A program made the translations under genes and the position numbers. A stretch of 64,000 bases of DNA, from the NCBI GenBank assembly GCA_002282445.1, contig NCJK01000002.1, positions 1 to 64,000 on the forward strand, written 5' to 3'. The DNA is from Burkholderiales bacterium 39-55-53. Lineage in GTDB: Bacteria > Pseudomonadota > Gammaproteobacteria > Burkholderiales > Burkholderiaceae_C. Shown here in pieces: positions 1-37,364 of this stretch. The notes beneath the pieces were generated by a model. The model was not told where the DNA came from, did not search any database, and worked only from the letters and a program-made list of their open reading frames with translations. The first letter of the stretch is position 1, and each line of letters starts with the position of its first letter.

Positions 1-3000
1 CGTCGTCGTTGTAGGTCTGAGCACCGGAGGTGGTGATGCGAGCGCCTTGGATGATGGCTTGGCCGCCGGCGTTGGTGGTGAGGCTAGCGGCGTCGACGGT
101 ATCCCCTAGGGTGGTGACACCCGACGTGTTGATAGTCAATGTGTGTGCGCTATCGACAGTCGATACAAAACTAATTGCGCCTGAGCTTGAGCTGCTAAGC
201 GTCGTATCTACGCCCAAGGTCACGGGGCCGCTATAGCTTTGCGCGCCTGACGTGTTGACCACACCGCCATTGATGGCTACGCTGCCACCTGCGGTCGTGG
301 CTAGGCTACCCAATTCGGCACTGTCTCCGATAGCCGCAGTGAAGGTGGTCGCACCTGTGGTTTGGATGGTCAATGACTTGGCCGCAACGCCGTTGGCTGA
401 GTTGATGGTTCCGCCGAAACTGACATTGCCACTGCCCGTGCTGATGATGACGTTGTCAGTCAACTCCAAGTCTGCACCACCCATCACCACGTCCGTATTG
501 GTCGTGCTGATCTGTCCTGCTGCAGAGATATGGCTCGGTGCTGTCGCGGTCAAGCCTCCTGTCAACACCAAGGTATCGGTCGCGGCATCACCCAAGGTTA
601 AGGTACCTGTTTGATTGAACACGGCCCCATTGCTCACGGTGGTTGTGCCACCTAACAACTTGAGGTTGTAGCCACGGACGGTCGTGGTCAGTGTGGGCGT
701 TGTCAAGTCATCTTCAAAGCTGATGTCTTGGCCTGTGCTTGTGTCACTGAGCACCACGCTGGTGTTGGCTTTGACTTCACCGCCGAATGTAGCGCCATTG
801 CTGTTCGTCAAAGTCAGGGTCTGCAAAGGTGTAGCTGCACCCACTGAACCCAACATGCTCACCGAACCTGTGCTGCCCGCATTCAAGTTGAGCGATTGGG
901 TGTCGGCCAATGTACCCTCCACGGTTCCACCGACTTGCAGGTTTGCACCTGCGGTGGTGAGCCAAACGTGGTCGGTCAGCGTCACGGCTGTGTTGTTGTC
1001 ACCCAGACTTAGTAACCCTGCACCGCTGGTGCTGATGTGACCCGCCGCGTTGATGCTGCTAGGTGCTGAAGCCGTTACCCCACCTGCAAAGCTGAGTGTG
1101 TCCGTGTTGGCATTGCCCAAAGTCAGACTACCCGTGTGGTTGAACACGGTGTTATTGGTGATGGAGGTGTGATCACCAAGCAGCTTGAGGTTATAGCCAT
1201 TGCCCGTTGTGCTCAGCGTGAGCGTGGTCAAGTCATCTGCGAAGGTGATGTCGTGCGCTGCATTTGTATTGCTCAACACCACGCTGGTGTTGGCTTTGAC
1301 GACGCTACTGAATGTGGCACCGTTGCTGTTCGTCAACGTCAAGGTCTTCAGCGGTGTGACCAAGCCCACGGTGCCCGTCACAGTCACGGCACCGGTGCTA
1401 CCAGCGTTCAGCGTCAAGGACTGCGTATCGGCCTGTGAACCCTCCACTGCGCCACCAATGCTCAGGGCGGCACCCGCAGTGCTGAGCGAGGCATGGTTGC
1501 TCAAGGTCACAGTGGTGTCGGAATCCCCCAAAGTCAGTGCGCCTGAACCGCTGGTGCTGACCACACCCGAGACGCTGATACCACTTGGTACGGTGGCCGT
1601 GACGCCCCCCACAAAGCTCAGGGTGTCAGTCACCAAATTACCAAGTTTCAGCGCACCGGTATTGGCGAAATTGGTCACGCCTGCACCCGTGATGCTGGTA
1701 TTCGCACCCAACAACTCCAACACATAAGGCTCGCCCATGGTGGTCAAGAGAGGCGTCGTCAGGTTACCCGCGAAGCGAATGACATGACCATCAGAGGTAT
1801 CGGTCAACACCACGCTGGTGCCCGTCGTGACGCCAGTGCTGAAGGTTGCACCGTTGCTGTTGAGCAACGTCAATGAACTCAAGGCTTTCGAGTCACCGAT
1901 TGCACCAGTCACCAAGACCGCGCCAACCGTTCCGGCATTGAGTGTCACAGCTTGTCCGTTGACAGTGCTGCCATTCAAGGTTTTGCTAAAGGTGATGTTT
2001 GCTCCAGCGATCGATCCGCCGTTGGTGGTATCAAAAGTGGTGTCTGTGGTCACCACCACGTCGTCAGCGAACACCATGGAGTTGAGACCGCTGGTGCGCA
2101 CGCTGCCGCCACTGAATGTAGTGCTGCCAGCGGCATCGGTTTCAAAGTGCACGGGCGCGTGCGTTGAGCCAATCGCACCTGTGAAGGTGCTGTTACCACT
2201 GTCATTGACGTTAACTATGGTGGTCGCATCCAGCGTGCTGCCAAAGGTGATGCCCGCTCCAGTGAAAGTCGTCGTACTTGTTGCCAAGCCGCCAATGTCA
2301 ACAAGACCGTTGTAGGTCTGTGCGAACGCACCTGAATTCACGCTACTTCCGTTTAGCGTGGTATCCCCGTTGATGGTGAGCTCGCCTGCCGCCGTGACCG
2401 CACCATCCAAAGTCAAACTGTTTGCGTTGATTGTGGTGGCACCACCTAAGGTCAAGGTATCACCAAAATCAAACGAGTTGGCAGACAAGGTGGCAGGATT
2501 GGTGAATGTCACAGGGCCCACAAAGCTAACCGTCCCTGTACTGGTGAAGTCACCATCCAAGGTGGTGGGGCCGGTGCTGAGCATGCGTAATTGGTACTCA
2601 CCCGCCAGCACCGGACTAGCCACATGCAAACTACCAGAGCCACTATCTATGTCAGTCATTTGTTGCAGGCTGATGTTTGTGGCACTGCGACCCAAAACCA
2701 TAGCGGAATTGTTCGAACGAATCAAACCTGCCATCGTCAAACCGCTTGGCGCTGTAGCCGTCAAACCACCTGCAAAATACAAGTTGTCTGTTTCGATAGC
2801 ACCCAACTGCAATGCACCGGTATTGGCCAAGGTAGTCGAAACTGTCGAGTCCGTCACACTCACTTGGCCGAGCAAGGTCAGACCAAAAGGCTTGGCTGCC
2901 ACCAACAGCTGAGGTGTGGTCAATCCGCCGTTAAAGGCTATGGTGCCAGCTGTCTCTGTCAACACCACGCTGGTGTCTGTGGTCACCTCTCCAGTGAAAG

Positions 3001-3550
3001 TGGTTGAGCCGCTATTCACTACCTCCAGTGTCTTCAATGACACTGCGCCACCCACCACACCTGCCGTGCTGACAGCACCCGAGCTACCGCCATCCAACGT
3101 CAAGGTCCGAGTGTTGGCAATGTCGGCATCAACTGTTTGCATGAAGCTCAATTGGCTGGAGGCTTTCACGGTCACATCAGTAAAGACTTTGACGATGTCG
3201 TAGAACACCGCATTGGTACTCGTCTGGATGCTGGCTCCTTTGAGGTGGGTCTCGCCCGCACCTGTGGTGAGAGAGTCAGTCGTCAGGTTGGTCAACGCAG
3301 CAGTACCGCCGATGATGCCGCTCAACACAGTGGTGCCGCTGTCATGCAGCGTCAAGTCGTAAGTACCGTCTACGGTGGACAGCACGGCCAAATTGACGCC
3401 TCGCAGGACAGTGGAAGCCGTCAGATTCACCATCTCGTTGTAAGTTTGTGTTCCTGTAGTGGTGATGCTGCCGCCATTCATCGTCACGCTGCCACCTGCA
3501 TTCGTCGTCACACTCGTCAAGGCAGTACCACCACCCACAACGCCACCAAA
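1..3550 (-). CDS. Out-of-frame continuation of the giant TPS exoprotein (partial, runs off left edge)
   Basis: I read the minus strand codon by codon from the 20-bp duplication down to base 1. The frame whose codons begin at coordinates 1 modulo 3 has no stop. It encodes the same Ser/Thr/Gly/Asn-rich beta-helix text as the upstream gene, for example TTSGAQTYND near base 40 and TNAGGSVTMNGGSITT near 3490. It has no start codon or ribosome site of its own and joins the preceding frame seamlessly if one 20-bp copy is removed. It is therefore the distal part of the same exoprotein, and is translated only in the non-duplicated form. The C-terminus lies outside the window, so a surface anchor, toxin or other end domain cannot be judged. 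Confidence 0.85.
640..1760 (-). repeat. Roughly 525-bp repeat in the distal part of the exoprotein
   Basis: The segment encoding GYNLKLLGG followed by TTVS begins at matching points near 666 and 1191 (525 bp apart), and a diverged third copy lies near 1720. The flanking NTSVVLSDTSTG-type and TLTNSNGATF-type segments repeat in step. It is a further beta-helix block of about 175 residues. Confidence 0.65.
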
Positions 3551-6500
3551 CCACCCACAACGCCACCAAATGTCGTGACGCCGGTAGTGTTCACCGTCAA
3601 GCTCTTCGCACCATCAACGGTGCCGCCAAGTGTGATGTCACCCGAACCAGTGCTGACCAAGGTCGTATCAACGCTCAAAACAACTGCTCCGTTGTATGAC
3701 TGAGCTCCAACGGAATTAATCGTCGCACCGTTCAGATTTGCCTGACCGTTGAACGTGACGTTTGAACCACTGCTAATAGTTTGATTGACCGTCACTTCTG
3801 GCGCGTACACAGAAATAGGGCCCGCTATGGCAACTGCACTGTTCAAAATAATATTTGTCAAGTTACCTGACTTACCAAGTGTTAATGCGCTGACGTTGCT
3901 GTCAAACGTATAGTCGCTAGTGACCAAGCTACTGAAGCTTGTACTGGCAGGTTGAATCGTGACAAAACCCGAACCTGTAAACCCGACTGTGCTAGGCGCA
4001 GTGTTGTTGGTAAACACAACGCCCCCTGCACTTCCCGTCTCTGTTGAACCCGTGTAGCTGTTTAAACCTGTCAGGCTTAGTGTGTTGCCACCAAGTTTGC
4101 TCAAGTCCCCGATACCAGAAATAGCATTACTGACAGTTACGTCATCCGAGCGGTTAAATACCAAGGAACCAAAGACCGACACCGCCCCAGTACCCAAAGT
4201 ACCCGTGGTCCCTGCATTGCCGATTTGCAAAGTCCCTGCACTAACCGTGGTGGCACCATACGTATTGGCACCCGAAAGTGTGAGTGAGCCATTGCCCGAC
4301 TTGGTTAAGCCGTTATTGCCAGCAATGATGCCCGCGTAGTTGACGCTCTTAGACGCATCAACAGCAAAAGTACCACCATTGCTGCCCAGTGTGATGCCAC
4401 GGTTGGCATGGAGTGTGAGGTCGGCGGTGGCTTGCAAAGTGCCACCATTGATAGTGATCTTGTCTGCCACCGCAGCAACCGGTGTTTCACCCAAATAAGC
4501 GTCAGCCGCCACCTCCAAGGTACCGCCATTCACCACAATCTTGCCTGCATGAGCATGGGCATCGCTGCTGGTCAATGTGCCGGTGAAAGTGCTGGGCAAC
4601 TCCGCAGTCCCAACGTTGCCGCCATCAGGCAAAACGCCCGTCTGGCCCAAGGCACCCGTCACTGCCCAGTTGGCAGCCTCTGACCAATTACCGTCACCGC
4701 CCACCCAAGTGGCAGAGGTCAGTTGGGTAATGTTTGCCGTTCCGTTGCCCGATGACAGGTTCACGCTGTACGAGCCAAAGTCTGCGCCACCCATCACCAC
4801 ACCTGTAATGGTCACTTGTTTGTTGGTTCCCACATGGCGGGAATCAAACGTTCCGGTCGCGGATGTGAAGGTCACCACATCGCCATTGGCAACCCCTGTA
4901 AAGCCAATCGGACCCGTGTTAATGAGAGGGCTGAAGCTTGCGTTCACATTGCCGTCGTAGACCTTGTCGTCGATCTTGAAGTTGTCCAAAATGAGCGCCT
5001 TTTTGCTCACCGTCAGCAGACTGCCGCCAGTTTGACTCATGGCATAACCTAATTTACTCAGGCCATCGGTGAGTGCGTAGGGCGTGGTGGTGTATTCCAA
5101 CTTATTTGCATTGGAGTAAGCCGCGTTTTCAATCACGACACCCAATCCAGCCACGGACTCATCACCGTTCAACGCAACGCGGAGCGTAGACAAGGGGTTT
5201 GTGCCATCAAGCTTCAAATTACCCAAAGTCAGGGTGTGATCGAAACCATATTCAGTGTTGAAACTCTCGATATTCGCTGAAGCCGTGGGACGTTCGCGGT
5301 AAATCGCGTTCGCCGCATCCGAACTGAGTGCCCAGGTGTAGTTAGTGGCACTCTCGTCCGAGTTGTAACGGAAGTTGCCAGAGCCTGACTCCACCAAGGT
5401 CGTCAATCCGGTACTGTCTGTCACGCTACCAGTGAACAACTGAATCGTGCCGCCTGTGCCCACTGTGAAACTAGCGTCTCCAGAAATCAAAATATTTCCG
5501 CTGGCTGTGGAACCAGTACCGCCCACATTGGCTGACTTGCCCGCATTCAAACGAATGGCCGTGGCTGATGTGCTGGTGGTGCTGACAGGCTCGGTCACCG
5601 TCAAATTGCCGGTCACCGTTTCAATCAACACATCGCCAGTAGCGGTGATACCTGTGGGATTGACTGTGCCAATCGTCATGGCACCCGCGTTCACATAGGT
5701 CAATGCACCCACGTCGCTGGCAGCAAAGGTATTGACACTGTTGTTGACGTTATCCAACGTGACACTGCCTCCGATCAAGGCCAGTTTGTCAGCAACGATG
5801 TAGCCTGACGCGCCATCACTGACGGTGCCAGAAGCATTCAAATAAACAGTGTTGTTGGTTGCTGTTAAGAGGGCGTTCACGCTCAGGTTGGCACCATACA
5901 AACGAATAGGACCATTGACTGTCGTGGCAGCACTCACTGAGACATCGCTGGTGTTACCCGACTTACCCAAAGTCAAGCCCGTGAGACCCGAAACGGTCAA
6001 TAAATTGCTTGAATCGGGCCAACTGACTGCGCTGGAGAAAGCGTTGCCAGCTGATTCCACAGTCAGCGTGCCTGTTGTCGCAATATTCAAGTCTGACTGC
6101 AAGGTCATGCGATCTGCTTGCAGCAGTACGTTGCTACTTGATTGGGTAATACTTGAGCCAGTTTTTGAACCCATGTACAGCTTGCCCAAATGCGTCGCGT
6201 CTTTGTAGGTCTTGATGCCACTGGCGCCGCCAAGCAGCGCAATTTGCCCAGTCGTAGCCAAGAGATTGACCTCGGTATCCCACCAAGGATTTCCGATTTG
6301 CATGGCGTAACCATTGGCTCCCGTGCCCGCGCCCTCAAGGGTGATCCCCCCGCCATTAGGTGCCAACACATTCACCTGACCTTCAAAGTACAAGCCCAAG
6401 GAATCAACCGCCGTTGACTGACCCTTGATATAAATCGCATCAGTGGCAGTGCTGCGCGATGTGATGGTCAACTCGCCTGTCACGCCAGCCACGCTGCTGT

Positions 6501-9500
6501 GCGTTCCCATCACAATGGCCATGCTCGAGCCCACCGCATCCAAACTTAACTTACCCGTCCCACTGCTAATTTGCGTTTGGTCGTAAGTCAAAATGCCATA
6601 GCCACTTGTGGAGCTGCCCTTGATCACGATGTCACCATTGCCTGAATTGATCGCAGTGTGCAGCAGTGCAATGCCACCCGACTGAACCGTTCCCAACTCA
6701 TACGCCACGGCAGTGCCACTGGTTGCGTAGCCGTCGCCTACCGTGAGACCGTTGAAATTGGCAGTGCCACTGCCGCCGCCAATCCAAACATGGCCGCCCG
6801 ATGTTGCAATGCTTGAACGTTCTTTGAGAACCACCATGCCGTTGCTGGCTTGACCGTCCGAGTTGGCCCACAACACCACATCGCCGCCAGTGGTGGTGAT
6901 GGCTTTGTCGCGAGCCAATGAAATATCACCGCTGGATTTGAGCAGCACATCGCCAGCTGCACCAGCCGCGGTGGTGTCCAGATTGCCACTCACATGGATC
7001 GTGCCGCCATAGGCACTGACAGGTCCTGCAATCGAGATGTCATACAAAGACACCGCATTGGCATTGGTGGATTTACCCACCGTCAAACCACCCAACGAGC
7101 TGTCAAATGTCCAGCCGGATGTTGAGAATGCACCCGTAAAGCCAGTTCCTGCAGATTCAATCAACAAGTTGCCTGCGCCCGAGAAGGAAGCACTGGCTGT
7201 TGTTGGCGCATCGTTTGACAACAACAAGCTGCCAGCATTCACGGCTGTGGCGCCAGTGTAAGTGCCATTGCTGGTGAGGGTCCAAGTGCCGGTTCCTACT
7301 TTGGTCAAACCGCCAGCACCCGAGATCGCACCGCCAAACGTGGTGCTGGTGTTGTTGGCACCCGTGCTCAAGAGAGCTCCGGCGCTCAGCACCAAGTTGC
7401 CACCGGTGGTGCCACCCCCCGCCAATGAACCAATGTCCAAACTGCTGTTGAGTTGCAATGTGGTGCCGCTGACATTGCTCAAGGTCACCGCTGAGTTGTC
7501 ACCCAGTGCGTTGGCATGTGAGGTGACGACCTTACCGCCTGTGATGCTGGTGTTGCCTGTGTAGGCGTTGTCACCACTGAGCGTCAAGGTGCCACCGGTG
7601 GCGTTCAATGACAAACCACCAGCGCCTGTGATGCGACCAGAGAACGTTGGGGCAATCGCATTCAACGTAAGTGAACCAGTCCCCGCAATGCTGAACGTGT
7701 GGAGGCTGTAACCGTTCGCAGAACTTGTACCTGCGGTATAAACCCCGCCTGTACCTGCACTTGTCCCCATATAGCGGACGACCACCAATCCAGAACCGCC
7801 GGTACCACCGGGGGTGTAGTTTCCGTTCGAGTTGCCCGCGCCACCGCCACCGCCACTGCCTGTGTTGACAGATGCTGAACCACCAGCGGTCGACAAGCCA
7901 CCGGCAATATAGGAGCCACCTGCACCCGCGCCCGTGACGACTGACCCGCCTGGGAATCCACCGCCGCCGCCGCCGCCAGCGTAAATCACGTCCTCACCAG
8001 TAATAGCGTTTGTGACACCATCGCCACCTGCACCACCTGTGGTTCCTGTGAAGTTGCCACCCGCGCCACCCGCACCGCCACCGCCGCCAGCAGCACGGTC
8101 GTGGATACCTGTACTGGCATCACCACCTGCAGTCCCCTGGTTACCTGCGGCTCCGTCGCGGTTAGCAGCCGTCGCACTGACAGCACCACCGCCACCCGAA
8201 GCACCGGACTTGGCCGCACCGCCTGCCCAATAGTCAGCGCCACCACCGCCACCCAAGGCGGTCAAGGTACCCAGCACCGAGCTGGTGCCATTGACGCCCA
8301 AACCTGTTGCGGCTGTTGTGCCATTACCACCTGCGCCGCCCGTTCCGACCGTGACCGTGTAAACCCCATCCAGCATCGACGTGGTCGTCCCAGACAACAC
8401 GCCACCCGCACCGCCGCCGCCGCCGCCATGCTCGTTTGGTGTACCGCTGCCACCGCCACCGCCGCCGCCAACAACCAAGTAGTCAAGCGCTGTGTCAAAG
8501 TCGACGGTGGTGGTGCCATTGAGCACCATGTCATTAGCCACGGACGTCACCCCACGACCCAAAATCAAGCCTGTGTTGTCTGCCAGCGTCAAGGCGCCAG
8601 TACCCAACGCGCTGTTGTGATAGAGACCCAAGGTGCCTGCGTCCAGGGTTTTAGCGCCTGCGTAGGTGTTAGCCCCCGTCAGGCTGAGGACAGACGCTGC
8701 ATCTGTGTCCTTGACCAACAACGTATTTGCCGTGTGACCGCCGCTGATCACACCGCTCAAAACTTGCTCTGCGCTGGAGCTGTAGACGAGCTTGGCGTTG
8801 TCAGCCTGTGTGCTGCTCAACGCAATGTCACCGGCGTAGCTGCCGCCACCCAAGCTACCTGAGCCCCCGACTTTCAAGGTACCCGCGTTGATGGTTGTGT
8901 CACCCGTGAAGGTGTTCACGCCTGTCAACGTGAGCGTTGACAAAGTGCCTGTGTCCTTGACCAAGACCGTGTTGCTGGCATGGCCACCGCTGATCACACC
9001 GCTGAATGTTTGGTCTTCGGTTGAGCTGTATTTCAGCTGGGCGTGATTGGCTTGTGTGGTGCTCAACTCGATATCACCTGCATAGCTGCCGCCGCTACCC
9101 AAGCTACCTGCGCCACCCACTTGCAGGGTACCTGCGCTGATGGATGTGTCGCCCTCGTAGGTGTTCACGCCCGTCAAGGTGAGAACTGATGTCGTCCCCG
9201 TGTCTTTCACCAATGTCGTATTTGCTGAATTTCCGCCACTGATGACACCACTCAGTGTTTGGGCTGCACTTGAGCTGTATTGCAGCTTCGCCACGTCAGC
9301 TTGAGCGGCGCCCAAAGTGATGGTGCCTGCATAAGTACCCGTGCCTAGGCTACCTGCACCAGCGACTTTCAACGTCCCTGAATTGATGGCTGTGTTGCCC
9401 GTGTAGGTGTTCACCCCTTGCAGGCTGAATGTGCCGGTGCCCGACTTGGTGAGACCACCCGTGCCAGCGATCACACCGGCATAGCTCAGACTGACCGCGG

Positions 9501-12500
9501 GATCGACAGAGAATGCACCCCCGTTCGCTCCCAAAATGATGCCTCTATTGGCATTGAGAGTGAAGCCCCCTGTGGCCTGCAAGGTGCCGCCATTCAAGGT
9601 AATGGCGTCGGTGACCACACTGGCTGGCGTTGCACCCAAGTAGCTGTCGCTGGCAGATTGAAGCGTGCCGCCATTGATTTGAATCTTGCCCTGGAAATTG
9701 TTTGCGCTGTTGGTGACCACGTTACCTGTGAAGGTAGATGGAATCACCACCGTGGCCACGTTGTTGAGCGTTGGAATTGCCCCCGTCTTGGTCAAGTCGA
9801 ATGAGGGTGCCCAATAAGCTGGATTGCTCCAATTGCCATCTGTGGGGCCCACCCAGACGGCTTGCTCGAGTTGCGTGATGGAGGCGCTGACAGAATTTGT
9901 GAAGAAGGCGTTGGTCAGTTGATAGCCGTAAACCGTGATCAAGCCATTTGCAGCATTGAGGTTCTTCGCCGTTACGTCGGATGAGCCAATTTGGACTGTG
10001 TAATTGGTACCAATCGCGGTCACTAAATTGCCATTGGCATCTTTGAAACTGCCCGTGGTGGATACGTTCAGTGGCGTGTCGCCGTTCACAAAACCAACAG
10101 GGCGGGCAATGTTGCCCATGCCAATGCTGCTGACATCCGATGAACCATCGTATTGTTTGGTGATTTCACCTGAGATGTCGACGGTCACGGTGGGAGCATA
10201 GGTGTAGAGAATGCCGTTGCCCGTGCCGAGGATGGCAGTTGTGCCATAAATCGCGTTGTACTGAACGTAGTCATTGAGCAAGGTAGCAACGTTGTCACCC
10301 GTGGTGGCGTGGTAGGGGTTTGCATTTGTGCTCCAAACCTGCCAAGTTTTTCCGTTCGGTACGCTCAGTGCGGTCGTGCCCAATTGGTTATTCACGCTGC
10401 TGGCTTTGAGAACAATATTGCCATTCGTGGTGGAGATACCTAGACCACTCACCAGTGTTAAGCCCGCGGTGTTGAGTACGGTGACATCTCCCGCGCTGCT
10501 GAGGGTACCCACCGTCAGCGCCGCACTGTTTTTCGCATTCAAGCCGCCAATGGCGGATGTGGTGTTCAACTTCGAAATCGTGTTCGCGGTATTGCTGAGC
10601 GTGTAATTGCCCGCCCCTGCAAGGTCAAGGTTGTAGCCTTGGCTTGCCACCACGCCCGAAACTGTAAGTGCGGTACCCGCCACATTGAAGGCACTGTCGG
10701 CCCCCAAGTTGATGCCCCCTGCCAAGGAACTTGTGCCCGTAGAGGTCGACAAGGTACCACCGTTCAGGTTCACGGTGTTGCCCCCCACTGTGACGTCTTG
10801 CAAGTCGAGTGTGGCACCAGAGGCGACGATCGCCTGACCCGTGACCGCCCCCAAACCTGTGTTGGTGGTGATGGCGAGCGTTCCTGCGTCAATCACGGTG
10901 TTACCGCTGTAGGTGTTCACGCCCGTCAACTTCAGCACGCTTGCGCTATCGGTGTCCTTGACCAACACGGTGTTGCCCACCACGCCGCCGCTAATCACAC
11001 CACTCAAAATTTGATCAGCACTAGAGCTGTATTCAAACTCGGGGGTATTCAGTGCCGTGCTGCCAAAGGTCAAGCTGCCGTCGTAAGTACCTGAGCCCAA
11101 GGTACCTGCACCACCCACTTTGAGGGTACCGGCATTGATCACCGTGTTGCCTACAAATGTATTTGTGCCAGTCAACGTCAACACGCTCGTGCTGGAAGTG
11201 TCTTTCACCAACACGGTGTTGGTCGCCTCGCCTCCAGCAATCACACCACTCAACGTCTGCGCCGCGCTTGAGCTATAGGCAAATTGTGCAGCGTTTGCCA
11301 AGGTGCTGCTGAGGGTCAATGTGCCGTCATACGTGCCAGAGCCCAGCTGACCCGATCCGCCGACTTTCAGGGTACCGGCATCAATATTTGTGTTGCCGAC
11401 GAAGGTGTTCACTCCAGTCAGTGTCAACACGCTTGAAGCCGATGTGTCTTTGACCAATACGGTTTTGGCGGCCGCGCCACCCGAAATCACGCCACCCAAG
11501 GTTTGCGCAGCACTAGAGCTGTAGGCAAACTGGGCGTCGTTTGCCGCGTTGCTGTTCAGGGCTATCGTGCCGTCATACGTACCTGAACCCAACTGACCCA
11601 CACCACCCACTTTCAAAGTACCTGCATCAATCAAGATGTTGCCAGTGAAGGTATTGGCGGCTGTCAAGGTCAACACGCTGTTGGTAGAGGTGTCCTTGAC
11701 CAACACCGTGTTCGAGGACGCGCCGCCTGAGATCACGCCACCCAAGGCCTGTGTGGCACTCGAGCTGAAGGCAAACTGAGCCGCGTTGGCCGCAGTGCTG
11801 CTCAAGACGATCGTGCCGTCATACGTGCCTGAACCCAAGCTACCCGCACCGCCTACCTGCAGAGTACCGGCATCGATAACCGTGTTACCAGCAAAGGTGT
11901 TCGTCCCCGTCAGCGTCAACACGCTGGTGCTTGACGTGTCTTTGTGCAGTACGGTGTTACCCGCAACACCACCACCCATGACGCCACTCAATGTTTGTGC
12001 TGCGCTCGAGCTGTATTCAAACAAGGCGTTGTTTAATGGATTGGTACTAAACGTCACGGAACCACCATAGGTGCCCGTACCCAAGCTACCGGCGTCAGCT
12101 ACTTTCAGGGTACCGGCATCAATGCGCGTGTTGCCAACGAACGTGTTTACCGCCTTCAGTGTCAACACACTGGTGGCAGAAGTGTCTTTGACCAACACGG
12201 TATTTGCGGCTACGCCGCCAGAAATCACACCACCCAAAGTTTGCGCAACGCTAGAGCTGTAGGCAAACTGGGCTTCGTTGGCTGCAATGCTGCTCAAGAC
12301 GATCGTGCCGTCATACGTGCCTGCACCCAGATTACCGGCGCCACCAACCTTGACGCTACCGGCATCAATGAGCGTGTTACCTGCAAAAGTGTTCACACCT
12401 GACAGTGTCAACACGCTAGTGCTTGAGGTGTCTTTGACCAACACCGTATTGCTTGCCACGCCGCCACCAATGGCACCGCTCAGGTTTTGTGTGGCGCTCG

Positions 12501-15500
12501 AGCTGAACTTGAACTCAGGGTTGTTAGCTGCTGTCGTACCCAAAGTGATCGTGCCTGCATAGCTGCCGGAGCCCAGGCTACCTGCAGCACTCACTTGCAA
12601 GGTACCGGCATCGATGAGGGTGTTTCCAACGAAGGTGTTGACACCAGTCAGCGTCAACACGCTGGTGCTTGAGCTGTCTTTCGTCAAAACCCTGTTACCC
12701 GCCACACCACCACCGATCACACCGCTTAGGGTTTGTGATGTGCTGGAGCTGAACTCGAGCTCAGGGTTGTCAAGGGCTGTACTACCCAAGTTGATGGCCC
12801 CTGCATAAGTACCCGCACCCAAGCTGCCCGTGCCGTTCACTTGGAGGGTGCCGGCGTTGATGGTGGTTGCGCCTGCGTAAGTATTGGCCGCCGTGAGGGT
12901 CATGACACCCGCGCCGTTCTTGATCAACTGGGTACTGTTACCCGTGATCAACCCCACCGTACCTGTGCTGGTTGGATTGAAAGTCACAGAGCTGGTGGCA
13001 TCGACATTGGCAATCGTCATGGTGTCCGAGGAGAAACTCACATCGTTCAAACCAGTACCCCCCCCGACTGAGTCGACTGTGATGGCTCCGGTGCCCGCGT
13101 TCACCGTCAAGCCTTGTGCACCTCCCGCCGAGGTCGTCGCACCGACCACGGTGACATTTGCACCACCCGACAAAGAGGAATCCAATTGCAAGGTGCCTGT
13201 GCCGTTCAACACCACATCGCTGCTGTAGGTTTGGTTGCCGTTTGAGGTGACGTTGCCCCCCAAGGTGGCCGTGCTGCTTACATCCAGAGTACCCAAATTG
13301 GTCATCGCCCCACCTGAGGTCAGCATGCCATTCACCACCAAGTCATAACCTGCCCCACCGACAGTGGAGGAAGTTGTGACTTGTGTGCCCGTCATCGTGG
13401 CATCAGCACCCAGTGTGATCGGGCCGAAGTAAGTCTGACCATAGGTGCTGACATAAGTTCCGCCCGACAAGGTGAGCGCGACGCCAGCGTTGCTGCTGCT
13501 ATTGACTGTGATCAAACCTGCATTGCTGGCACCTGCCGTTGTCGCTTTGAGGTAACTCAGGGCTGTGTCGATATTGAAGCTCGGCTGTGTCACCGTCAAT
13601 TCAAGCGACGAATTGGTGGGCATTTTGGCAGCCGTGGCTGCGTAGTGCGTAGCCCCCATGGTGTTACTCATGTTGGTGTTGAGGGCTGTCATGCTCAGAT
13701 CAAGCGTGGAGCGCAACTGCGTTAAGCCCTGCCAAACTTTGCCCAGCCCCGTCGCTGCACCATTGATGACCAAGTTGTTGTCGCTGTTGAGCACCTGTGT
13801 ATCGCTGTAAGCCATTCCCACGTAATTACCAGGCGATGTGAAGCTCAGCGCATTTGCCATCTTTGTGGTGGAGCTGATCACCAACTGAGAATCAGCAAAC
13901 AACACACTGGAGGATGGTCCCACCAGCTCATAAAAATAACCATTCGCGCCGGTCGTGACCATGCCACCGTTGAGCAACTTGCCGTCGCCATATACGCCCA
14001 CGAGAGCGCCCGCTGAAATGGTGGTGCCATCTGTTTGATAGGCAAATCCAGAAATAGATTGCGTAGGCGAGGCGCCATAAATAGAAACCAAGTACGGATA
14101 CAAACCAGCGCCTCTACTCCACGTCGATGAAGAGAAGTTGGTTGGCAACGCGCTCATGAGCGTGGCGGTAGACAATCCCGTTGAAGGCGAAGTCAACCCT
14201 GGCAGCGTGATGTCACCCGTTTGACCAGAGGTATCGGTGTCGTAATAAATGTAATTACGGTTGACACGGTAGGTGTAGACCCATGGGTCGTTAATTGTTT
14301 GGCGGTAATGAGTTTCGTAGTTATCCACATAGCCAAACGTTGGACCAAAATATGTCGGAGTTGCAGTCGACGAAGTGACATATCCGGTCGCATAGGCATT
14401 GGTGAACGTGCCACGCAATACACCGCCCATCAGTCCGCCGACATAGTCACTCCCTCTGACGGCACCCATGGCGTAAAAGTCGGACATCGTTCCGTAGTAA
14501 TTGGAATGAACATAGCCAGCAAAACCACCTGCATAGTTTTGAGTGGCAAGAACGCGTCCTGTTGCGTAACTCTTAGAAATCGACCCGTCATTGGTGGCGT
14601 AGCCTAAGAAGCCCCCCACATAGTTGGTGCCGTCAACAGAACCTGCAGCCCGTGAATTGGTGATGTTGTAGCCAGAGTAGGTATTGAAATAGCCTACAAA
14701 TCCGCCAACATTATTGGTTCCGGTCGTATTCGAGCTGGCATAAGACTGGTTGATGCTGCTGTGGTAATTGATAGATCCGACAAAACCACCCGTGTTCGTG
14801 GTGCCTGTGGCGGTACCTCTAGCGCCTGAATTGTTGATGGAGCTGTAGGACATCAAACCAATAAAACCACCGGTGTTGTCTCCGCCAGTGACATCGCCAT
14901 AGGCTGTCGAGGATCCGATAGAAGACCACGATGTCATTTGACCAGCAAAGCCGCCAGAGTTAGAACCACCCGTGACGGCACCCGTGGATGTGGATGACGA
15001 GATCGAACTGGAGTTGTTGATCAACCCAACGAATCCACCGACGTTTGTACCCAAACCCACGACTTTTGAATTGGTGCTTGAACCAGAAATAGAGGATGAG
15101 TCATTCAAATAACCAATGAATCCACCAACGTGATTGGTGCCCTTCACGCCAAAGTAAACAGTGGTGGCGCCATTGGCGTAGGAGCCACTCGTCTCGTTAG
15201 ACACGGTGGAGGTGTTCATGCTGCTGTTGTAGGAATAGCCAACCAAGCCACCAACGCTGCTGGTGCCTGACACCCATCCCTTGGCGGTGGAGTTGTAGAC
15301 CGAACTGCCATACATACGACCCACCAAGCCGCCAACGCTGTCGGAACCCTGCACGGTGCCAGTGGCAAGCGTGGCACCACTTTGACCGATCGCATACCAA
15401 TAATTGATGCCGGCCAAGCCACCCACATCGTTTGAACCAGTCACATTACCTGTGGCTGTTGCGTTGTTGATGTTGGCCTGATTTTGTCCAACCAGACCAC

Positions 15501-18500
15501 CGGTCTGATACTGACCCGCGACATTTCCGGTGGCGGTGACGTAGTTCAATGAAACATAGTTCAAGCCAACAAGGCCTCCGGTGTAGCTGCTGGAGGTGCT
15601 CGTGACATTACCTGTGGCATAAACGTTGGTAATTGACCCACCTTCGGCCGACCCCACCAAGCCGCCCACACGCTCCCAATTGGCGGTCACATTGCCGGAT
15701 GCATAAGTCGTGCTTGAGCCGACGGTGGGTGAAGAGCCCGAAATGGTCCCAGAGCTGTAGCCAGCGAGTCCCCCGACATACGATGAGTTACTTTGCACCT
15801 CACCCGTGCTGAACGAATTAGTAATGGAAGACTGACTTCTGCCCACCAAACCACCCGTTTGGTGGCCGCCCTTGACCAAAAGACCTGTGTACTTGCTGTC
15901 GTTCACAGAGACATTCGAATACCCGATCAGACCACCGGAATAAGTGCCCGAGTAACTAGGAGAGCCAGCAGAGCTATAACCGGTGACCCGGCCCGATGCA
16001 GACGCATTTTTGACAGAACCCGAGCTGGCATAGCCAATCAGGCCACCGACATAATCACCCGCAGCCTCTACGTCATTGGTCGCAAAGGTGCTGTAGTTGG
16101 GGGTGGCAGCGACGACTGTGTCACCGATCGTTCCTTGGGATTGCCCGATCAAACCGCCCACATAGTTCACACCTTTGACCAAACCATCTGTGTGCGAACT
16201 CAACTTAAGCCAAGAACTGCTTTGCTCCAAGGCTCCCAGCAAGCCACCCACATAGTTACCACCACCGGTGACAGCACTGGTCGAGCTCGATCCTGTGAGT
16301 GAGCCATAGTACAAACGGCCAGCCAAACCACCCACATACGAACCACCGGAGACAGCACCAGAAGTCGTTGAATTAGTTAAGGTACCTGTATTCACGCGAC
16401 CTGCGATACCCCCCACATCGGTGCCGCCTGTGACAGCAACGCTCGAGGTTATGTTGTTCAACAAGTTGGTTGCGCTGGATGTCGAATTGATAAAGCCAAC
16501 CACACCACCCACGTTGCTATAACCCGTGTTTGTGGTCGACCCATAAATGTTGTCGTTGGGATCCCCAACGTAGCTGATGTCGCTACCGGTCACATCGCCA
16601 GAAGCGGTGATGTTGGTCAAGGCACGCAGATAAGAAGCGCCAACAGCTGCACCCACATTCAACTTACCCACCACCGACGCGGTGCTGAGGGTCCAGTTAT
16701 CCATGGCTTGGGCTGAGGTATCGCCGCGGCCGTTAACGTAACCCAGGAAGCCCAAATTAGAGGTGTTTTGGCTCAAGGTCAAATTGCTGATCGTCATGCC
16801 GTTTGGATTGAACAAACCAGACACATAGGGAATGAACAAACCCTTATCAGCCACGCTGTCGAGCGTGATGCTTTGCGAGAGCTTGAATTTCAAAGAGCTT
16901 TGGTCCGAGTAGCCCAAGTAGTCTTTCAAATTTTGTGCTGTTGCAAGTTTGTAATAGCCGTCCGTATCCGCGGCACCAAAGTAACCTTCAAGCACAGGCG
17001 TATTGGTCGCGGCAAGTCCGTCAAGTCCTGCATTGAACCAAGTGGTGTACTGAGTCCCAAACAAACCACCGGTCGTGATCAAACCTGTGATGGCTGATTT
17101 CACCCCCGCACTGCTTGGGGTGGGGCCGGTGATGCTCACCGCATCCAAGTTGTAGTGGGCGTTGACCGTGGTGGAACCGGGTGTCATGAACCCCACCAAA
17201 CCGCCAAAGTTGCTGTCTGCCGTCACCGAGCCCGTGGAATACGCGTTTTTGATCACAGCCGTCGTGTCTGCGCGACCGACCAAACCACCCACATCGTTTC
17301 GACCCACCACACTGCCTGAGGCGAATGAGAACTTCGTGCCATACGTACCCAACACGCCTGAATTTTCTTGGATCGTGCCGGCCAACTTACCCACCAAACC
17401 GCCCACATAGTCCGATGACGCAGTGACGGGTCGCAGTGTGGACGAGCCCATGATCACTGCAGAGCTGTCCGTGATACCGACCAAACCACCCACATAAGCA
17501 GTAGCCGTCACAGATCCAGTGATGTATTGAGAGTCCGTGATCACGCTACCAAATTGCCCACCCACCAAGCCACCCACATAGAAAGAGGATGAGCCTGTAC
17601 CCAAACTCAGCGTGCCAGACGCATAGGAATTGGTCACGGTGCTGCTGGAGTAACCAATCAAACCGCCGACGTAATTGGAGGCAAAACTATCCGCTATCAC
17701 CACATTACCCGTGGCGTACGAATCCGTCACTGAGCTATACGAACGGCCGACCAAGCCGCCTACATAGTTATTCCAATTGCCATTACTTGTCACAACACCC
17801 GTCGCGTACGACGTACTGATCGCGTTTTGCGATCGTCCGACCAAACCACCTGTGAAATCGGATGAGTTTTGAACCGCTCCCGTCGCAAAGGAGTCGGAGA
17901 TCGTGCTGTCGTTATAGCCAACCAAACCGCCGACGTAATAGTTGGTTGATGAGACATTACCCGTTGCATTTGAAGTCGTCACTGCACCGTTGGTATAGCC
18001 CAGCAAGCCGCCCACATAGTTGGAGGTCGATTCAACAACACGATCGGAATAAGAATTACTCACGGCAGCCAAGTTATAGCCAACCAAACCACCCACATAA
18101 GTGCCACTTGCAGAGACCTTCCCCACCGTCGCATAGCTGCTGTCAATGATGGTTCCAGATCCTGCGTTACCGACCAATCCACCCACTTGTCCCCCCGAGG
18201 TGGCTGTGGCGACGACCTCGCCTGTGGCCCACGAGTTGGTCATCTTGCCGCCGACGTTGAGACCACTCCACACCATGGAGAAAGAACCAATCAAGCCGCC
18301 CACTTGGCCGCCGCCCGTTTGTGTCACTTTGCCAGTGGCGCTCAGTTGATCAAACAACAGGCCATTGGACGCGCCAATCAAGCCACCCACAAAATTGCTA
18401 GCGCCTGTCACTGCGCCGGAAGCAGAAGACGAACTCAGGTTCAACACAGCGTTTGTTGGGTTCAAGCTCATGCCGTAGAACTGGCCGATCAAACCACCCA

Positions 18501-21500
18501 CATAGGCGCCACTGGCGGTGACGGCACCGCTTGCTGTGAGACCCGTCCCCAAGTAGTCGGTGACGTTTGCGTTGCCAGGGGCATAGTAAGAGTTGTAGTA
18601 GCCCACCAAGCCACCCACAAGCGTCGTGCCCTCGACGATCACATTGCTGGTCAGATTGGTTGCCGCCACGCTATCCATGCGTCCCACTAGGCCACCGGTA
18701 TTTCCCGTGGCAGGTGCAATGGCAGACACGGCGTGCGTGGTGTTGATGACCTTGGATGTACCGGCCACACCTTGTGCTGAAGCCGAGTTGTACATCACGC
18801 CTTGGTTCACATGTCCGACCAAACCACCCACGTAGTTGCTGCCACTCACGTTGGCAGACAACGTGGAGGTGCTATCTGCTATCACCCCGTTGTAAACGGC
18901 GCCAGCCGCAGCACCGATGTATTCAAGTCCGTTGACCAATCCTGAGTTATTAACCTTCAGGTTCGACAAGGTTGATTTGTGCACCATCCCCAAGAAACCG
19001 ATGCCAGAAGTTTGGCGGTCAAACGCAAAGTTGTTGACCTCATAGGTGTTACCCACAAACGCCGTACCGCCGAAGTACGGCAAGTACTTGGTCGTCGCAG
19101 TGCTCATGTCTAGATTGCCACCCAGCTTGAAGGTGTAGTCGCTCACAGCGCCACCCACGCCAGAGTCAATGAAGGCCAAGGCTTTGCTGAGGTCCGACAA
19201 GGTTCCCGTGTCGGTCACAGACGTGATGAGATAGGTATTTCCCGTCAGATCCGATGTGTCTGCCGTCAGGTAACTGGAAATGCTGAGTGGGGTGCGACTG
19301 GAGGGCGTCACGATCAGGCTACTGCCCGTCGGGTTAGACCACGTCAAATACTGAGATGCGTACAAGCCACCCGGCGTCAAGAACGTTGCGGTGTTGAATT
19401 TGCTGTTATCGAGGTCGTAATAACTGTTACGCAACCAAGTACCGGGCACCATATAGCCTGCAAGTCCACCGTAATTAGAGGGCGTTGCGTCTGTCGTGAT
19501 TTGGCCTGAGTAATACGCATCTTGGATGGATCCACCCAAGGTGTTACCACTTGTTCCCATGCGCCCTACCAAGCCGCCAATGAAGCCTGCATTGGCTCCA
19601 CTCACAGAGATGTTGGCGTTGACATAAGAATTTGAAATTGCAGCCCACGTAGAAGCGTCACCCACCAAGCCGCCTACATAAAGTTTGCCTGTGGTCGCCC
19701 CTGTAGAACTGATCGTCCCATTGACATAGGAGTTAGAAATCGTGGCAGTCGTTGCACTACCCACCATGCCAGCAATGTAATTACCTGTACCTGTGACCGT
19801 CGAGTTATCGACTGAAGACGTGTTGACCGTTGCCGTGGGGGTGTAACCAACCAAGCCTCCCACATAGCTGCTCGTGCCCGTGCCACTCACGGCAACGCCA
19901 TTGACGCTTGAATTGCTGATTGAGACGAATGAGCTTCCCCAGGTTGGCGTCGGGGTTGCGCCAACAAAACCACCCACAAAGCCACCAGCACCGGTCACAG
20001 AAGGTGCCGTCACCGTGGTATCGCTGATCGTGGCGCTACAACCGTACCAGCAGTAATAGGTTGAATACCATTCGTAATAGGAGTTGCGATAAACACTGCC
20101 AACAACCCCGCCGGCATAGGCGCCTGTCGCCGCCCCGGACAGACTGCCGGTTCCAGTGGCAGTCACTTTTGCATTTGATGTGGGCGAGTAAGCTGCGCCA
20201 TAGGTCGCGGGAGCACTGCCATCGGACTTGAGGGTCAACGTGGAGCCCACGGTGCCCACCATGCCACCCACACTGTAAGTACCTTGAATACCTGAACCGC
20301 CATTGGCGATGTTCACATACGAATTACGGATGTCGAGGGTGTTGTAGGTACTGCTCATACCCACTAAACCGCCGACAGAGTAGGTCTGGCTCGTGACCGA
20401 TGCGCCGTCGTAGTGGGATGCGTAAATATTCAAGACACCGTCCGCATGTCCAACCAGTCCACCCACATCATTTGCAGTGCCAGTCACTGTTCCTGAAGCA
20501 TATGAGTTGCCACTGATGGTCAGGGTGGAGCCCGCACCACCCACAAGACCGCCGACATAGGACGATCCACTGACATTTCCTGAGGCATAGGAGTTGGTGG
20601 TGATGGTCAGAGGTGAGCCAGAACCACCCACAAGTCCGCCAACGTATGAGCCCCCAGCGACAGGACTCGACACATTTGAATTGGTGATCGAGCCACTTGA
20701 ATTGTGATAGCCAACAAGTCCGCCCACAAATGCTGAGCTACCGCCGGTGACCGTGGGGGAAGTGACGGACACATTATTCAGGCTAACAGTACCGTATGAG
20801 TACCCCACAATACCGCCCGCATAGGCTCCTGTAGAGCCGTAGTTGTAGTCGCTGTAGTAAGGACGACCGTTGGATGTCGCTGTCACGCTTGCATCCGTAT
20901 AGGGTGCAGTCGCTCCGTAATTTGTATCGAGCTGGACGTTCAATGTCGACCAAGTGCGTCCGACCATACCTCCAACATAGAAGCCACCTTGGATGGCCGT
21001 CGTACCGCCAGATTTATCAACAAACGAACTGCGAACATTCACAGCACCGCCACTGTAGCCGACCAATCCGCCTACGTCACTGCCCGTACCGCTGACCGTT
21101 GCACCGCCGTAGGACGACGCATAAATATTCAACGCCCCACTCGACCCCACCAAGCCACCCACAGAAGACCCACCGCTGACGGCGCTTGTGGCAGAGTCGT
21201 TTGTCAGGGTCACTGTGTTGCCTAAACCGATCAATCCGCCAACGTTGCTTCCTGTCGAAACAATGGATGAGCTCACACTTGAGTCGGTGATGGTCGCGGA
21301 ACCTCCTTGATTGCCGACAAAACCGCCCACGTTGTGACCCGAGCCAGAAATCGTCGCAACGCTGACGTTAGCGCCAGTGATCGTCGATGCACCGCCAACA
21401 TAGCCGGCTAGGCCACCTGCGTTAACGTAGCCGGTGTTGACGGCTCCTGTTGTCGCTGTGACGTTGGCTTTTGAGTAGGGCGACAGCTGAGTGCCATAGG

Positions 21501-24500
21501 TCGCGCTGTCTGCGTTGGAGGCCAAGGTAAACGTCGATGACGCATTGCCCACCATACCGCCAACGTTGTAGGTACCCTGGACAGCACTTGTCCCGCCCGA
21601 CTTCTCGACATACGAGTTCACAACGCTCAGGGCACCAGAACTCAATCCCACCAAGCCGCCCACGTCATAGCTCGTGCTCGTGACCGAGGTTCCGCCGTAA
21701 TACGAGCCATAAATATTCAGGGCACCGTCGCTGCGACCTACCAAACCACCCACACCATTCGCACTGCCCGTCAGCGTGCCTGTGGCGTAGTTGCTCTTGA
21801 GTGTGCGGGCCACGTTTCCGCTCATCCAGCCCACCAAGCCGCCCACGGCATACGAGCCGCTGACATTGCCGGTCGAGTAAACATCGCTCAGCGTGCCAGT
21901 CACTGACATATTGCCCACCAAACCACCCACGCCGTAAGTGCCCGTCACGCTGGCGGCAGAGTACGGGGTGAGTGAGGTGCCGTAGGTCGACACATCTGAG
22001 CTGTCCGCTTTGAGGGTCAATGTCCCGCCTGACAAGCTACCAACCAAACCGCCCACGTAGTAAGTGCCTTGCAACGCACTGGTACTGGCCATAGAGGTAT
22101 TTCGGATGTCCAAGGTGGCGCTGCTTGCGCCCACCAATCCACCTACGTCATGGCCCGTTGCAGACAACGTCGTACCGCCAAACGTGGAGGCGTAGATTTT
22201 CAAGACGCCGTCACTTTGGCCGACCAGTCCACCCACATAACTTCCGTTCGCAGTGGTCGCGCTCACGGTTGTGCCTGAGAACGTATCGTCCTTGAGGGTC
22301 ACGACGCCTGTGGCTGCAACACCGCCGATCAAACCGCCCACATAGCCGCCCGCACCCGTCACCGTGGTGGCGCTCACGCTGGCACCTGTGATGGTGGTTG
22401 TCCCCGCCACATAGCCTGCCAAGCCGCCCACGTAAACAGCGTTCAATCCGTTTCCTGTGGTTCCCGTCACGCTGGCCTTGGAGTAAGGCGCCAGTGATGC
22501 CCCGTATGTGGCTGATGACGAGGCATCCGCAATCACGGTCAATGTTGAAGCACTGTTGCCCACCATGCCGCCCACGTTGTACGTGCCCTGCACCGTCGTT
22601 GTGCCGTCTGCTTTGCCAGCATACGAATTACGGATATCCAAGGCGCCGGAGCTCAGGCCCACCAAACCGCCCACGTCGTAGCTCGTGCTCGTGATCGACG
22701 CACCGCTGTAATTCGAGTCATAAATATTCAAGGCACCGTCACTGCGGCCCACTAGGCCACCCATGCCGTTCGCCGCACCTGACAATGTGCCAGTGGCATA
22801 GCTACTCTTAAGGGTACGGGCCAAGTTGCCGTTCATCCAGCCCACCAAGCCACCCACGGCATAGGAAGAACCCGTCACGTTACCCGTGGCGTAAACATCG
22901 CTCAGCGTGCCAGCCACAGACATATTGCCAATCAATCCACCCACGCCGTAAGTGCCCGTCACAGCAGCCGCAGAGTAAGGTGTGACGGAAGCACCGTAGG
23001 TCGACACACTGGAGTTGTCGGCCTTGAGGGTCAAGGTCCCACCTGACAAGTTACCAATCAAACCACCCACGTAGTAGGTGCCTTGTAAGGCACTGGTGCT
23101 GTCCATATAGGAGTTGCGGATATCTAGTGTGGCCGTGCTGGCCCCCACCAAGCCACCCACGTCGTGACCCGTGGCTGAGAGCGTTGTGCCCGCAAATGTG
23201 GAGGCATAAATATTCAACACGCCATCACTACGGCCCACCAAACCGCCCACATAGTTACCGTTCGCCGTGGTGGAACTCAGCGTAGTACCCGTGAATGTGC
23301 TGTCTTTGAGGGTCACTGCGCCTGTCGCTGCGACACCGCCGATCAAGCCGCCCACATAGCCACCGGCGCCTGTGACTGTGGTGGCATTCACGGTTGCGCC
23401 CGTGATGGATGTCGTCCCAGCGACATAGCCAGCCAAACCACCCACATACACCGCGTTGGATCCGTTGGCAGTGGTTCCTGTCACGTTAGCCTTGGAGTAA
23501 GGCGCCAGAGATGCCCCATAGGTTGCAGAAGACGAGCCATCTGCCGTCACCGTCAAGGTCGAGGCGCTATTGCCCACCAAGCCACCCACGTTGTACGTGC
23601 CCTGCACGGCACTGGTGGCGCCTGTCTTCTCTACATACGAATTACGAATATCCAAGGCACCCGTAGCCAAGCCCACCAAGCCACCCACGTCATAGCTAGC
23701 GCCTGTGACCGAGGCACCACCGTAGTAGGACGCATAAATATTCAAGGCACCATCACTACGGCCCACCAAGCCGCCCACATCAATGCCGCTGCCTGTCACT
23801 GTGCCTGTCGCGTAATTGCTCTTGAGGGTGCGCGCCGAGTTGCCGTTCATCCAGCCCACCAAGCCGCCCACGGCATACGAGCCGCTGACATTGCCCGTGG
23901 CGTACACATCGCTCAGCGTGCCAGCCACAGCCATATTGCCAATCAATCCACCCACGCCGTAGGTGCCCGTTACCGCAGCGGCTGAATATGGAGTGAGGGA
24001 TGCACCATAAGTTGACGCATTGGAGCTATCCGCTTGCAATGTCAACGTGCCGCCTGACCAACTGCCGATCAAACCACCCACGTAGTAAGTGCCCTTGACT
24101 TCAGACCCGCCGGTTTTCTCGACATACGAATTGCGAACGTCCAAGGTGCCACTGCTCAGGCCCACCAAGCCGCCCACGTCGTAGCCGGTGGTGCCACCTG
24201 TCACTGTTGCGCCACCGTAGTAGGAGCCGTAGAGGTTCAGCGTTCCCGAGTTGCTACCCACCAAGCCACCAATGTCTTTGACACTGCCGGTGACCGAGCC
24301 CGTGGCGTAGGTGTTGGTGAGTGTGGCGGTGTTGTTGTTAGAACCCATCAAGCCGCCGACAGCAGTGCCGCCACTGACGGTGGTCACGCTGTAGGAGTTG
24401 CTGATCGTGCTGCCCGTGTAGTGCCCCACCAAGGCACCCACCGAGGTTGCACTGGTTGCCGTGACGGTGCCAGTGGCGATGACATCAGACATCGTCAACC

Positions 24501-36923: not shown

Positions 36924-37364
36924 TTAGCGTTTAGGTTTATTTGGGGGAATCGTCTCAATCACTTGGATGATCAGCTCTGCCCCTGTCAGATCTTGGCGTG
37001 GAATGTAGGCCTGCACCAACCACCCTCTTTTGCGATATTCCTCAGTCACGGCATCGGTCAAATGCTTCAAATCATGCTCATTCAAAGCCCGATTTGCAAA
37101 AGATTTGACGCTTGCCAGCAAATCTGCGTCGCTCAATCGGGCGTTTCCGAGAAACTTGAATCGCTGCACAACGATCGATGTGGCGTCAGTCAACACAGCT
37201 TCAGGGGGCAAAGCCACGCGCGTTTGAAAGCTAGGCTGGGTTTGACTGAATCGTATGTTTTGCTCGGTTTGGCGCATCAAAGCGCCTGCATCTGGGATGT
37301 TTTGCGCTGCCGCGGCCGCGCTGAAAAGCACAGAAAAAGCGACGGTCAATTGCGTGTTGCGCAT
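36924..37364 (-). CDS. Secreted stand-alone POTRA-domain protein of the TPS operon
   Basis: This 146-residue protein has a signal peptide (VAFSVLFSAAAAAQ) and a single ShlB-type POTRA domain with VVQRFKFLGNARLSDADL, then YRKRGWLVQAYIPRQDL and LIIQVIETI. It ends a few residues later (PPNKPKR) where a transporter would enter its barrel. A strong ribosome site (GAGGGGG) precedes the ATG. It sits 131 bp upstream of the full transporter in the same orientation. It could be a periplasmic chaperone or adaptor holding the exoprotein's TPS domain, or the preserved stump of a duplicated tpsB. The clean signal peptide, good ribosome site and short polar end favour a functional protein. The role is inferred. 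Confidence 0.8.
   Translation of the reverse strand: MRNTQLTVAFSVLFSAAAAAQNIPDAGALMRQTEQNIRFSQTQPSFQTRVALPPEAVLTDATSIVVQRFKFLGNARLSDADLLASVKSFANRALNEHDLKHLTDAVTEEYRKRGWLVQAYIPRQDLTGAELIIQVIETIPPNKPKR

What the first reader, a model, noticed from the sequence alone, without database searches (positions are those of the whole stretch)
3517..3570. A 20-bp tandem duplication breaks a >34-kb exoprotein gene
Two identical adjacent 20-mers shift the frame. Removing one rejoins two stop-free frames that together reach the window edge. The rest of the gene, over 10,400 codons upstream and about 1,180 downstream, has no other break. So the change is recent, reversible by repeat deletion (phase switching) or an assembly artefact. 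Each case matters for how this protein should be annotated.
Basis: seen in the sequence. Interest (0 to 1): 0.85.

Follow-up and report, generated by a model that had tools for sequence, protein, structure and literature searches.

The report
Duplication truncates giant secreted protein gene
In this freshwater bacterium's genome assembly, the gene for a giant secreted surface protein carries an extra 20-letter repeat that stops it early, while the related genes that could be read in full are unbroken; it is most likely a recent one-off mutation or an assembly slip rather than a built-in switch.

Summary
An exact 20-bp tandem duplication (3530-3570) ends a minus-strand frame of 10,490 codons at a TGA (3517-3519); a second frame of 1,179 codons runs from inside the second copy to base 2. 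The gene is a two-partner-secretion exoprotein (TpsA) beside its TpsB transporter, in a Limnohabitans-type genome. The window edge is the end of contig C7. The gene very probably continues on contig C1 for 1,560 codons to a conserved C-terminal module and syntenic genes, giving at least about 39.5 kb. Seven homologous junctions in four relatives show no extra copy (five read as DNA). The five relatives' giant genes checked at both ends are unbroken. The downstream pieces have no stop and look as constrained as the upstream part, so the break is young. No repeat tract was seen at the homologous sites, which argues against an evolved phase switch. Best reading: a recent, in principle revertible, one-off duplication truncating the exoprotein. 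Assembly artefact is the main rival and needs reads to exclude. Reversible inactivation by spontaneous tandem duplication is already known (pneumococcal capsule genes).

The parts
3530..3570 (.). exact tandem duplication of a 20-bp unit (2.05 copies), not a multiple of three
3517..3519 (-). TGA stop that ends the upstream frame, 17 codons after the repeat is entered at 3570
3517..34989 (-). upstream frame of the giant TpsA exoprotein gene, 10,490 aa from the GTG; likely true start is the ATG at 34935 (10,472 aa)
34009..34764 (-). TPS secretion domain (PF05860), the only one found in this genome
2..3538 (-). downstream frame of the same gene, 1,179 aa, open to the contig end; collinear with intact genes of relatives
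1..100 (-). contig end; about 95 bp shared with the start of contig C1, where the gene very probably continues (C1:1-4683)
34993..36792 (-). TpsB outer-membrane transporter (POTRA_2 + ShlB), directly upstream
36924..37364 (-). 146-aa protein with a single POTRA domain, upstream of TpsB; found upstream of the close TpsB relatives too

Best explanation
A recent, one-off 20-bp tandem duplication has arisen inside the gene for a giant two-partner-secretion exoprotein (TpsA) in this strain. Shown: the duplication in the assembly, the frame change, the early stop, the open and constrained downstream frame, and the absence of the extra copy at homologous junctions. Inferred: the duplication is in the DNA and not only in the assembly; the N-terminal 10,470 or so residues, with signal region and TPS domain, are still made and exported through TpsB as a long beta-helical filament, while at least about 2,700 C-terminal residues are lost, including the conserved C-terminal module (DUF5649 repeat plus a weak He_PIG/Ig-like match). 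That should alter surface retention or adhesion. Two adjacent identical copies can be lost again by replication slippage, so the change is revertible, but nothing shows that it was selected as a switch.
For: Exact repeat and frames. Seven homologous junctions in four genomes (G023, G027 twice, G028 three times, G068) have the two flanks adjacent with the same three-residue spacing; five of them were read as DNA and have one unit. The five giant genes checked at both ends (G005, G026, G027, G028 twice) are uninterrupted. The downstream piece has dN/dS 0.23, 0.24 and 0.27 in its best alignments to G027 and the two G028 genes, within the 0.15-0.37 of the last 3,500 upstream codons; and there is no stop in 1,175 + 1,560 codons, which allows less than about 0.05 (first piece alone) or 0.02 (both, my sum) neutral substitutions per site since the break, against dS of about 1.4-1.6 in those alignments. 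No 20-mer of 3401-3700 occurs elsewhere in 849,163 sampled bases of the genome, so no repeat at the site was seen that could confuse an assembler. It is the only one of 5 exact tandem duplications of period 10-300 in that sample that is not a multiple of three.
Against: No reads and no second assembly of the species could be examined, so the extra copy may not be in the DNA. Flanking microhomology is only 1 bp (the 41-bp run), so no good slippage substrate for forming it is evident. The junction lies in a recurrent motif, and several junction alignments are weak (30-66% identity), so some may be paralogous units.
Confidence: 0.58

Rival explanations
1. Assembly artefact: contig ends or local joins with a short overlap were put together without merging the overlap, leaving the 20 bp twice.
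For: Draft assembly of 14 contigs. Of the 13 contig starts examined (C14 was not), 5 share about 43 to 99 bp with another sampled stretch, that is overlaps or repeats left unmerged. The gene itself is cut at such a place 3.5 kb away. Relatives lack the extra copy.
Against: Only 1 out-of-frame exact duplication of period 10-300 in 849,163 sampled bases, and no N; the site is unique at 20-mer level in that sample; collapse, not expansion, is the usual fate of short tandem repeats in short-read assemblies (recalled).
Confidence: 0.32
2. Evolved phase variation: the tandem repeat is a contingency locus that switches between long and truncated exoprotein.
For: Perfect adjacent copies, length not a multiple of three, inside a surface-protein gene. 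Reversible inactivation by spontaneous duplication is known in pneumococcal capsule genes (PMC4022640 and PMC4243769, passages, citing Waite 2001 and 2003).
Against: Only two copies. The five homologous junctions read as DNA carry no repeat tract. In the relatives' giant-gene stretches the other exact tandem repeats (period 8 or more, at least 12 matching positions) are multiples of three. No polymorphism data.
Confidence: 0.08
3. Programmed ribosomal frameshifting reads through the duplication.
For: The downstream frame is open and lies in the -1 frame.
Against: No X_XXY_YYZ heptamer in frame between 3603 and the stop and no homopolymer of 5 or more in 3490-3620; no notable fold (DNA parameters, z +0.80); relatives need no shift.
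Confidence: 0.02

Closest known systems
Spontaneous reversible sequence duplications in pneumococcal capsule genes (type 3 locus, cap8E, tts; Waite et al. 2001, 2003, seen only as cited in passages and reference lists of PMC4022640 and PMC4243769)
   Same: A short tandem duplication inside an open reading frame inactivates a surface-structure gene and can be lost again.
   Different: There reversible loss is described; here only one assembly is known. The gene is a giant TPS exoprotein, not a capsule enzyme.
FHA/HMW1-type two-partner secretion exoproteins (type Vb)
   Same: TPS domain and filamentous-hemagglutinin-type N-terminal domain, neighbouring TpsB with POTRA and barrel.
   Different: About 13,000 residues in all, far larger than FHA (recalled). 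The C-terminal module is DUF5649 plus a weak Ig-like match, without cysteine in 8 of 8 aligned C-termini, so not the HMW1/HxuA disulfide anchor described in PMC5422565 (passages).
Tandem-repeat copy-number phase variation in M. tuberculosis promoters (PMC12817950, abstract and outline seen)
   Same: Copy number of tandem repeats changes in clonal populations and is obscured by short-read sequencing.
   Different: Promoter repeats with measured variation; here a coding repeat with none measured.

Membership tests
Two-partner secretion exoprotein (TpsA) | N-terminal TPS domain | tested here: met
   PF05860 E 2.1e-40; TIGR01901 E 1e-22
Two-partner secretion exoprotein (TpsA) | cognate TpsB gene adjacent | tested here: met
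   34993-36792: PF03865 and PF08479
Two-partner secretion exoprotein (TpsA) | secreted through TpsB | not testable with these tools
   needs experiment
Contact-dependent inhibition (CdiA) | C-terminal toxin domain, variable between strains | tested here: not met
   C1 part matches only DUF5649 in Pfam and nothing in PADLOC or NCBIfam; the C-terminus is conserved in 8 of 8 aligned. An immunity gene was not sought; the next frame, C1:4760-5860, has only a weak PADLOC match (MkoC, E 0.0016)
HMW1/HxuA-type anchored TpsA | C-terminal disulfide (cysteine pair) | tested here: not met
   no cysteine in 8 of 8 aligned C-termini of 230 aa
Phase-variable (contingency) locus | repeat length not a multiple of three, inside the reading frame | tested here: met
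   20 bp
Phase-variable (contingency) locus | repeat tract kept or copy number varying between strains | tested here: inconclusive
   5 of 5 homologous junctions read as DNA in 4 relatives lack a second copy, but these are other species; strains of the same species were not available
Phase-variable (contingency) locus | both states within a clonal population | not testable with these tools
   no reads

The most novel reading that the evidence does not exclude
The 20-bp duplication is a real, reversible toggle in natural populations that alternates a giant TPS exoprotein between a full form carrying its C-terminal module and a form shortened by about a fifth that may be shed from the cell: a length switch rather than an on/off switch.
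Probability: 0.07. Interest if true: 0.6.

Novelty: new member of a known kind. Interest (0 to 1): 0.3.

Why it matters
It decides how a very large gene is annotated: as one gene of about 39.5 kb or more, broken by a young duplication and by a contig gap, rather than as three separate genes. It also warns that giant repetitive exoprotein genes need read-level checks before pseudogene or phase-variation claims. If reads showed both states, it would be a case of switching protein length rather than expression.

Tried and rejected
Programmed frameshifting: no slippery heptamer, homopolymer or strong fold. Two genes rather than one: rejected, because relatives read across the junction in one frame. 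A break in G028 similar to this one looked possible (two frames overlapping by 45 bases), but one search shows the first frame ending in the conserved C-terminus and a second gene beginning with its own signal region, so these are two intact tandem genes. CDI toxin: no toxin domain found. Repeat-driven misassembly at the site itself: the site's 20-mers are unique in the sample. Viral contigs: 4 stretches matched a pattern, 0 encode a relative. Paper searches on Limnohabitans with hemagglutinin or adhesin, on giant genes and on short tandem duplications listed no report of this gene; this rests on the listings plus passages of PMC6971282 (Daphnia Limnohabitans MAGs with adhesin transport genes, no adhesin gene named). 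Weak dystroglycan matches of the C-terminal profile in the PDB (best E 0.22) are not evidence.

Full report
What is there. Window 3530-3570 holds an exact tandem duplication of 20 bp. Four places in the window come within three mismatches of the unit, against 0.01 expected; two of them are the two copies. On the minus strand a frame of 10,490 codons (34989..3517) runs into the repeat and stops at TGA 3517-3519. A second frame, 1,179 codons from a GTG inside the second copy (3538..2), runs to the end of the window. In 200 base shuffles of that stretch the longest open run was 278 codons, against 1,204 observed from stop to edge. The two frames differ by exactly the length of the repeat unit.

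What the gene is. The upstream frame begins with a TPS secretion domain (PF05860, E 2.1e-40; TIGR01901), and the two inner pieces scanned carry GLUG and PATR repeats. Directly upstream lies a TpsB transporter (34993-36792; PF03865, PF08479). It is therefore the exoprotein of a two-partner secretion system, with the only TPS domain found in the genome (1 match). The nearest named relatives of the TpsB are a Comamonadaceae MAG (75%), Limnohabitans sp. Jir61 (74%) and a second Comamonadaceae MAG (72%) among 7 loci, so the organism is of Limnohabitans type.

The gene goes on beyond the window. Window base 1 is base 1 of contig C7. Contig C1 starts with about 95 bp that are also at the end of C7 in the opposite orientation and has an open frame of 1,560 codons to a stop. 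Its last 230 residues are the same C-terminal module as in seven genes of relatives (47-53% identity to it). Frames behind it match the DNA behind the giant gene in 5 of the 6 relatives' stretches searched (G005, G026, G027, G028, G066; G068 gave none). With a single TPS domain in the genome, C1 very probably holds the 3' end. The minimum size is then about 13,180 codons or 39.5 kb (sum); how much is missing at the contig gap is unknown.

Relatives. Of 84 genomes of the genus, 13, the own one included, match the downstream piece at E 1e-3, all listed places without a stop inside. Five giant genes in four relatives were checked at both ends (G005 9,103 codons; G026 11,675; G027 11,249; G028 10,056 and 11,367), and all five are uninterrupted. 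Others in the fetched stretches were left out of this count: those that run off a contig or stretch (G001, G002, G023, G066, G068) and the 6,460-codon frame of G004, whose ends I did not compare. I queried the 400 residues before the repeat and the 300 after it separately. Of 10 places in relatives where the upstream query matches to its last residue, 7 (in G023, G027, G028 and G068) have the downstream match next to it, each with exactly three residues between; the identities are 30-66%. Five of the seven were read as DNA and have one unit. In G005, G026 and G001 the two pieces matched, but not as one contiguous junction. The extra copy is therefore derived, or not real.

Age. The downstream piece has dN/dS 0.23, 0.24 and 0.27 in its best alignments to G027 and the two G028 genes. 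The last 3,500 upstream codons give 0.15-0.37 where dS could be computed. dS is near saturation, so these are rough; weaker alignments of the downstream pieces gave up to 0.45. With no stop in 1,175 codons, less than about 0.05 neutral substitutions per site can have passed since the break, and less than about 0.02 if the C1 piece is counted (the joint figure is my sum). The break is young or artificial.

Is it part of a pattern? In 849,163 bases of this genome (window plus 40 stretches, about a third of the genome) there are five exact tandem duplications of period 10-300: four of period 12 and this one. In the relatives' giant-gene stretches the exact tandem repeats found (period 8 or more, at least 12 matching positions) are all multiples of three. 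Three that are not multiples of three turned up, all in L019, a Sulfuritalea MAG, and were not examined further. In the window part of the gene, 25 of 26 maximal exact repeats of 20 bp or more are spaced by a multiple of three; this one is the exception. So the gene family keeps frame, and this site looks like an accident rather than a habit.

Artefact or mutation? For artefact: a draft assembly in which 5 of 13 examined contig starts share 43 to 99 bp with another sampled stretch, and a gap in this same gene. For mutation: the site is unique at 20-mer level in the sample, there is no N and no other out-of-frame duplication of period 10-300 in a third of the genome, and no other break in about 39 kb of this gene. 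I lean to a real, recent mutation (0.58) over an artefact (0.32). The difference is judgement; no call decides it.

Mechanism. Truncation after about 10,470 residues leaves signal region and TPS domain, so export through TpsB should go on (inference from the TPS pathway; PMC5422565, passages). What is lost includes the conserved C-terminal module, a DUF5649 repeat (8 of 8 members) followed by a weak He_PIG/Ig-like match (5 of 8 at E 1 or better; below the gathering score in the one member shown). In HMW1 and HxuA the C-terminus holds the exoprotein at the cell (PMC5422565, passages), though by a disulfide that is absent here, so shedding is only a guess. The duplication can revert by loss of one copy. 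For tandem insertions of at most nine bases in pneumococcus, PMC4022640 (passages) gives an expected reversion frequency of at most about 1e-5.

Known or new. Reversible inactivation by spontaneous duplication within a reading frame is established (Waite et al. 2001 and 2003, seen only as cited in PMC4022640 and PMC4243769). This would be a new instance, in an unusually large gene, if reads confirm it.

Noticed in passing
window 36924-37364 (-): A 146-aa protein with a signal-like start and one POTRA domain only, just upstream of TpsB. The same small frame lies just upstream of the TpsB in 7 of 7 relatives with a TpsB of 73-79% identity, and 16 of 84 genus genomes (own included) match it in a frame under 200 aa; most of the other matches are the POTRA domain inside full TpsB frames. 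Possibly a third, POTRA-only component of these secretion loci.
   Followed up: partly
L082-L085 (G028 C1:1276001-1356000): Two giant TpsA genes in direct tandem (10,056 and 11,367 codons) behind a TpsB, about 64 kb of exoprotein genes on a 2.65-Mb contig.
   Followed up: partly
L022 4684-20000 against relatives: Frames behind the giant gene are up to 98% identical to G005, while the exoprotein's aligned parts are about 29-70% identical to relatives': the exoprotein seems to evolve much faster than its neighbours.
   Followed up: no
window 10911-12723: 7.4 imperfect copies of a 246-bp (82-codon) unit inside the exoprotein; the best PATR match lies next to it, at about 12838-12927 (converted).
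   Followed up: no
L022 5972-6982 (C1): A YqaJ-like viral recombinase domain protein near the end of the giant gene; it and the frame before it gave no match at E 1e-8 in the six relatives' downstream stretches.
   Followed up: no
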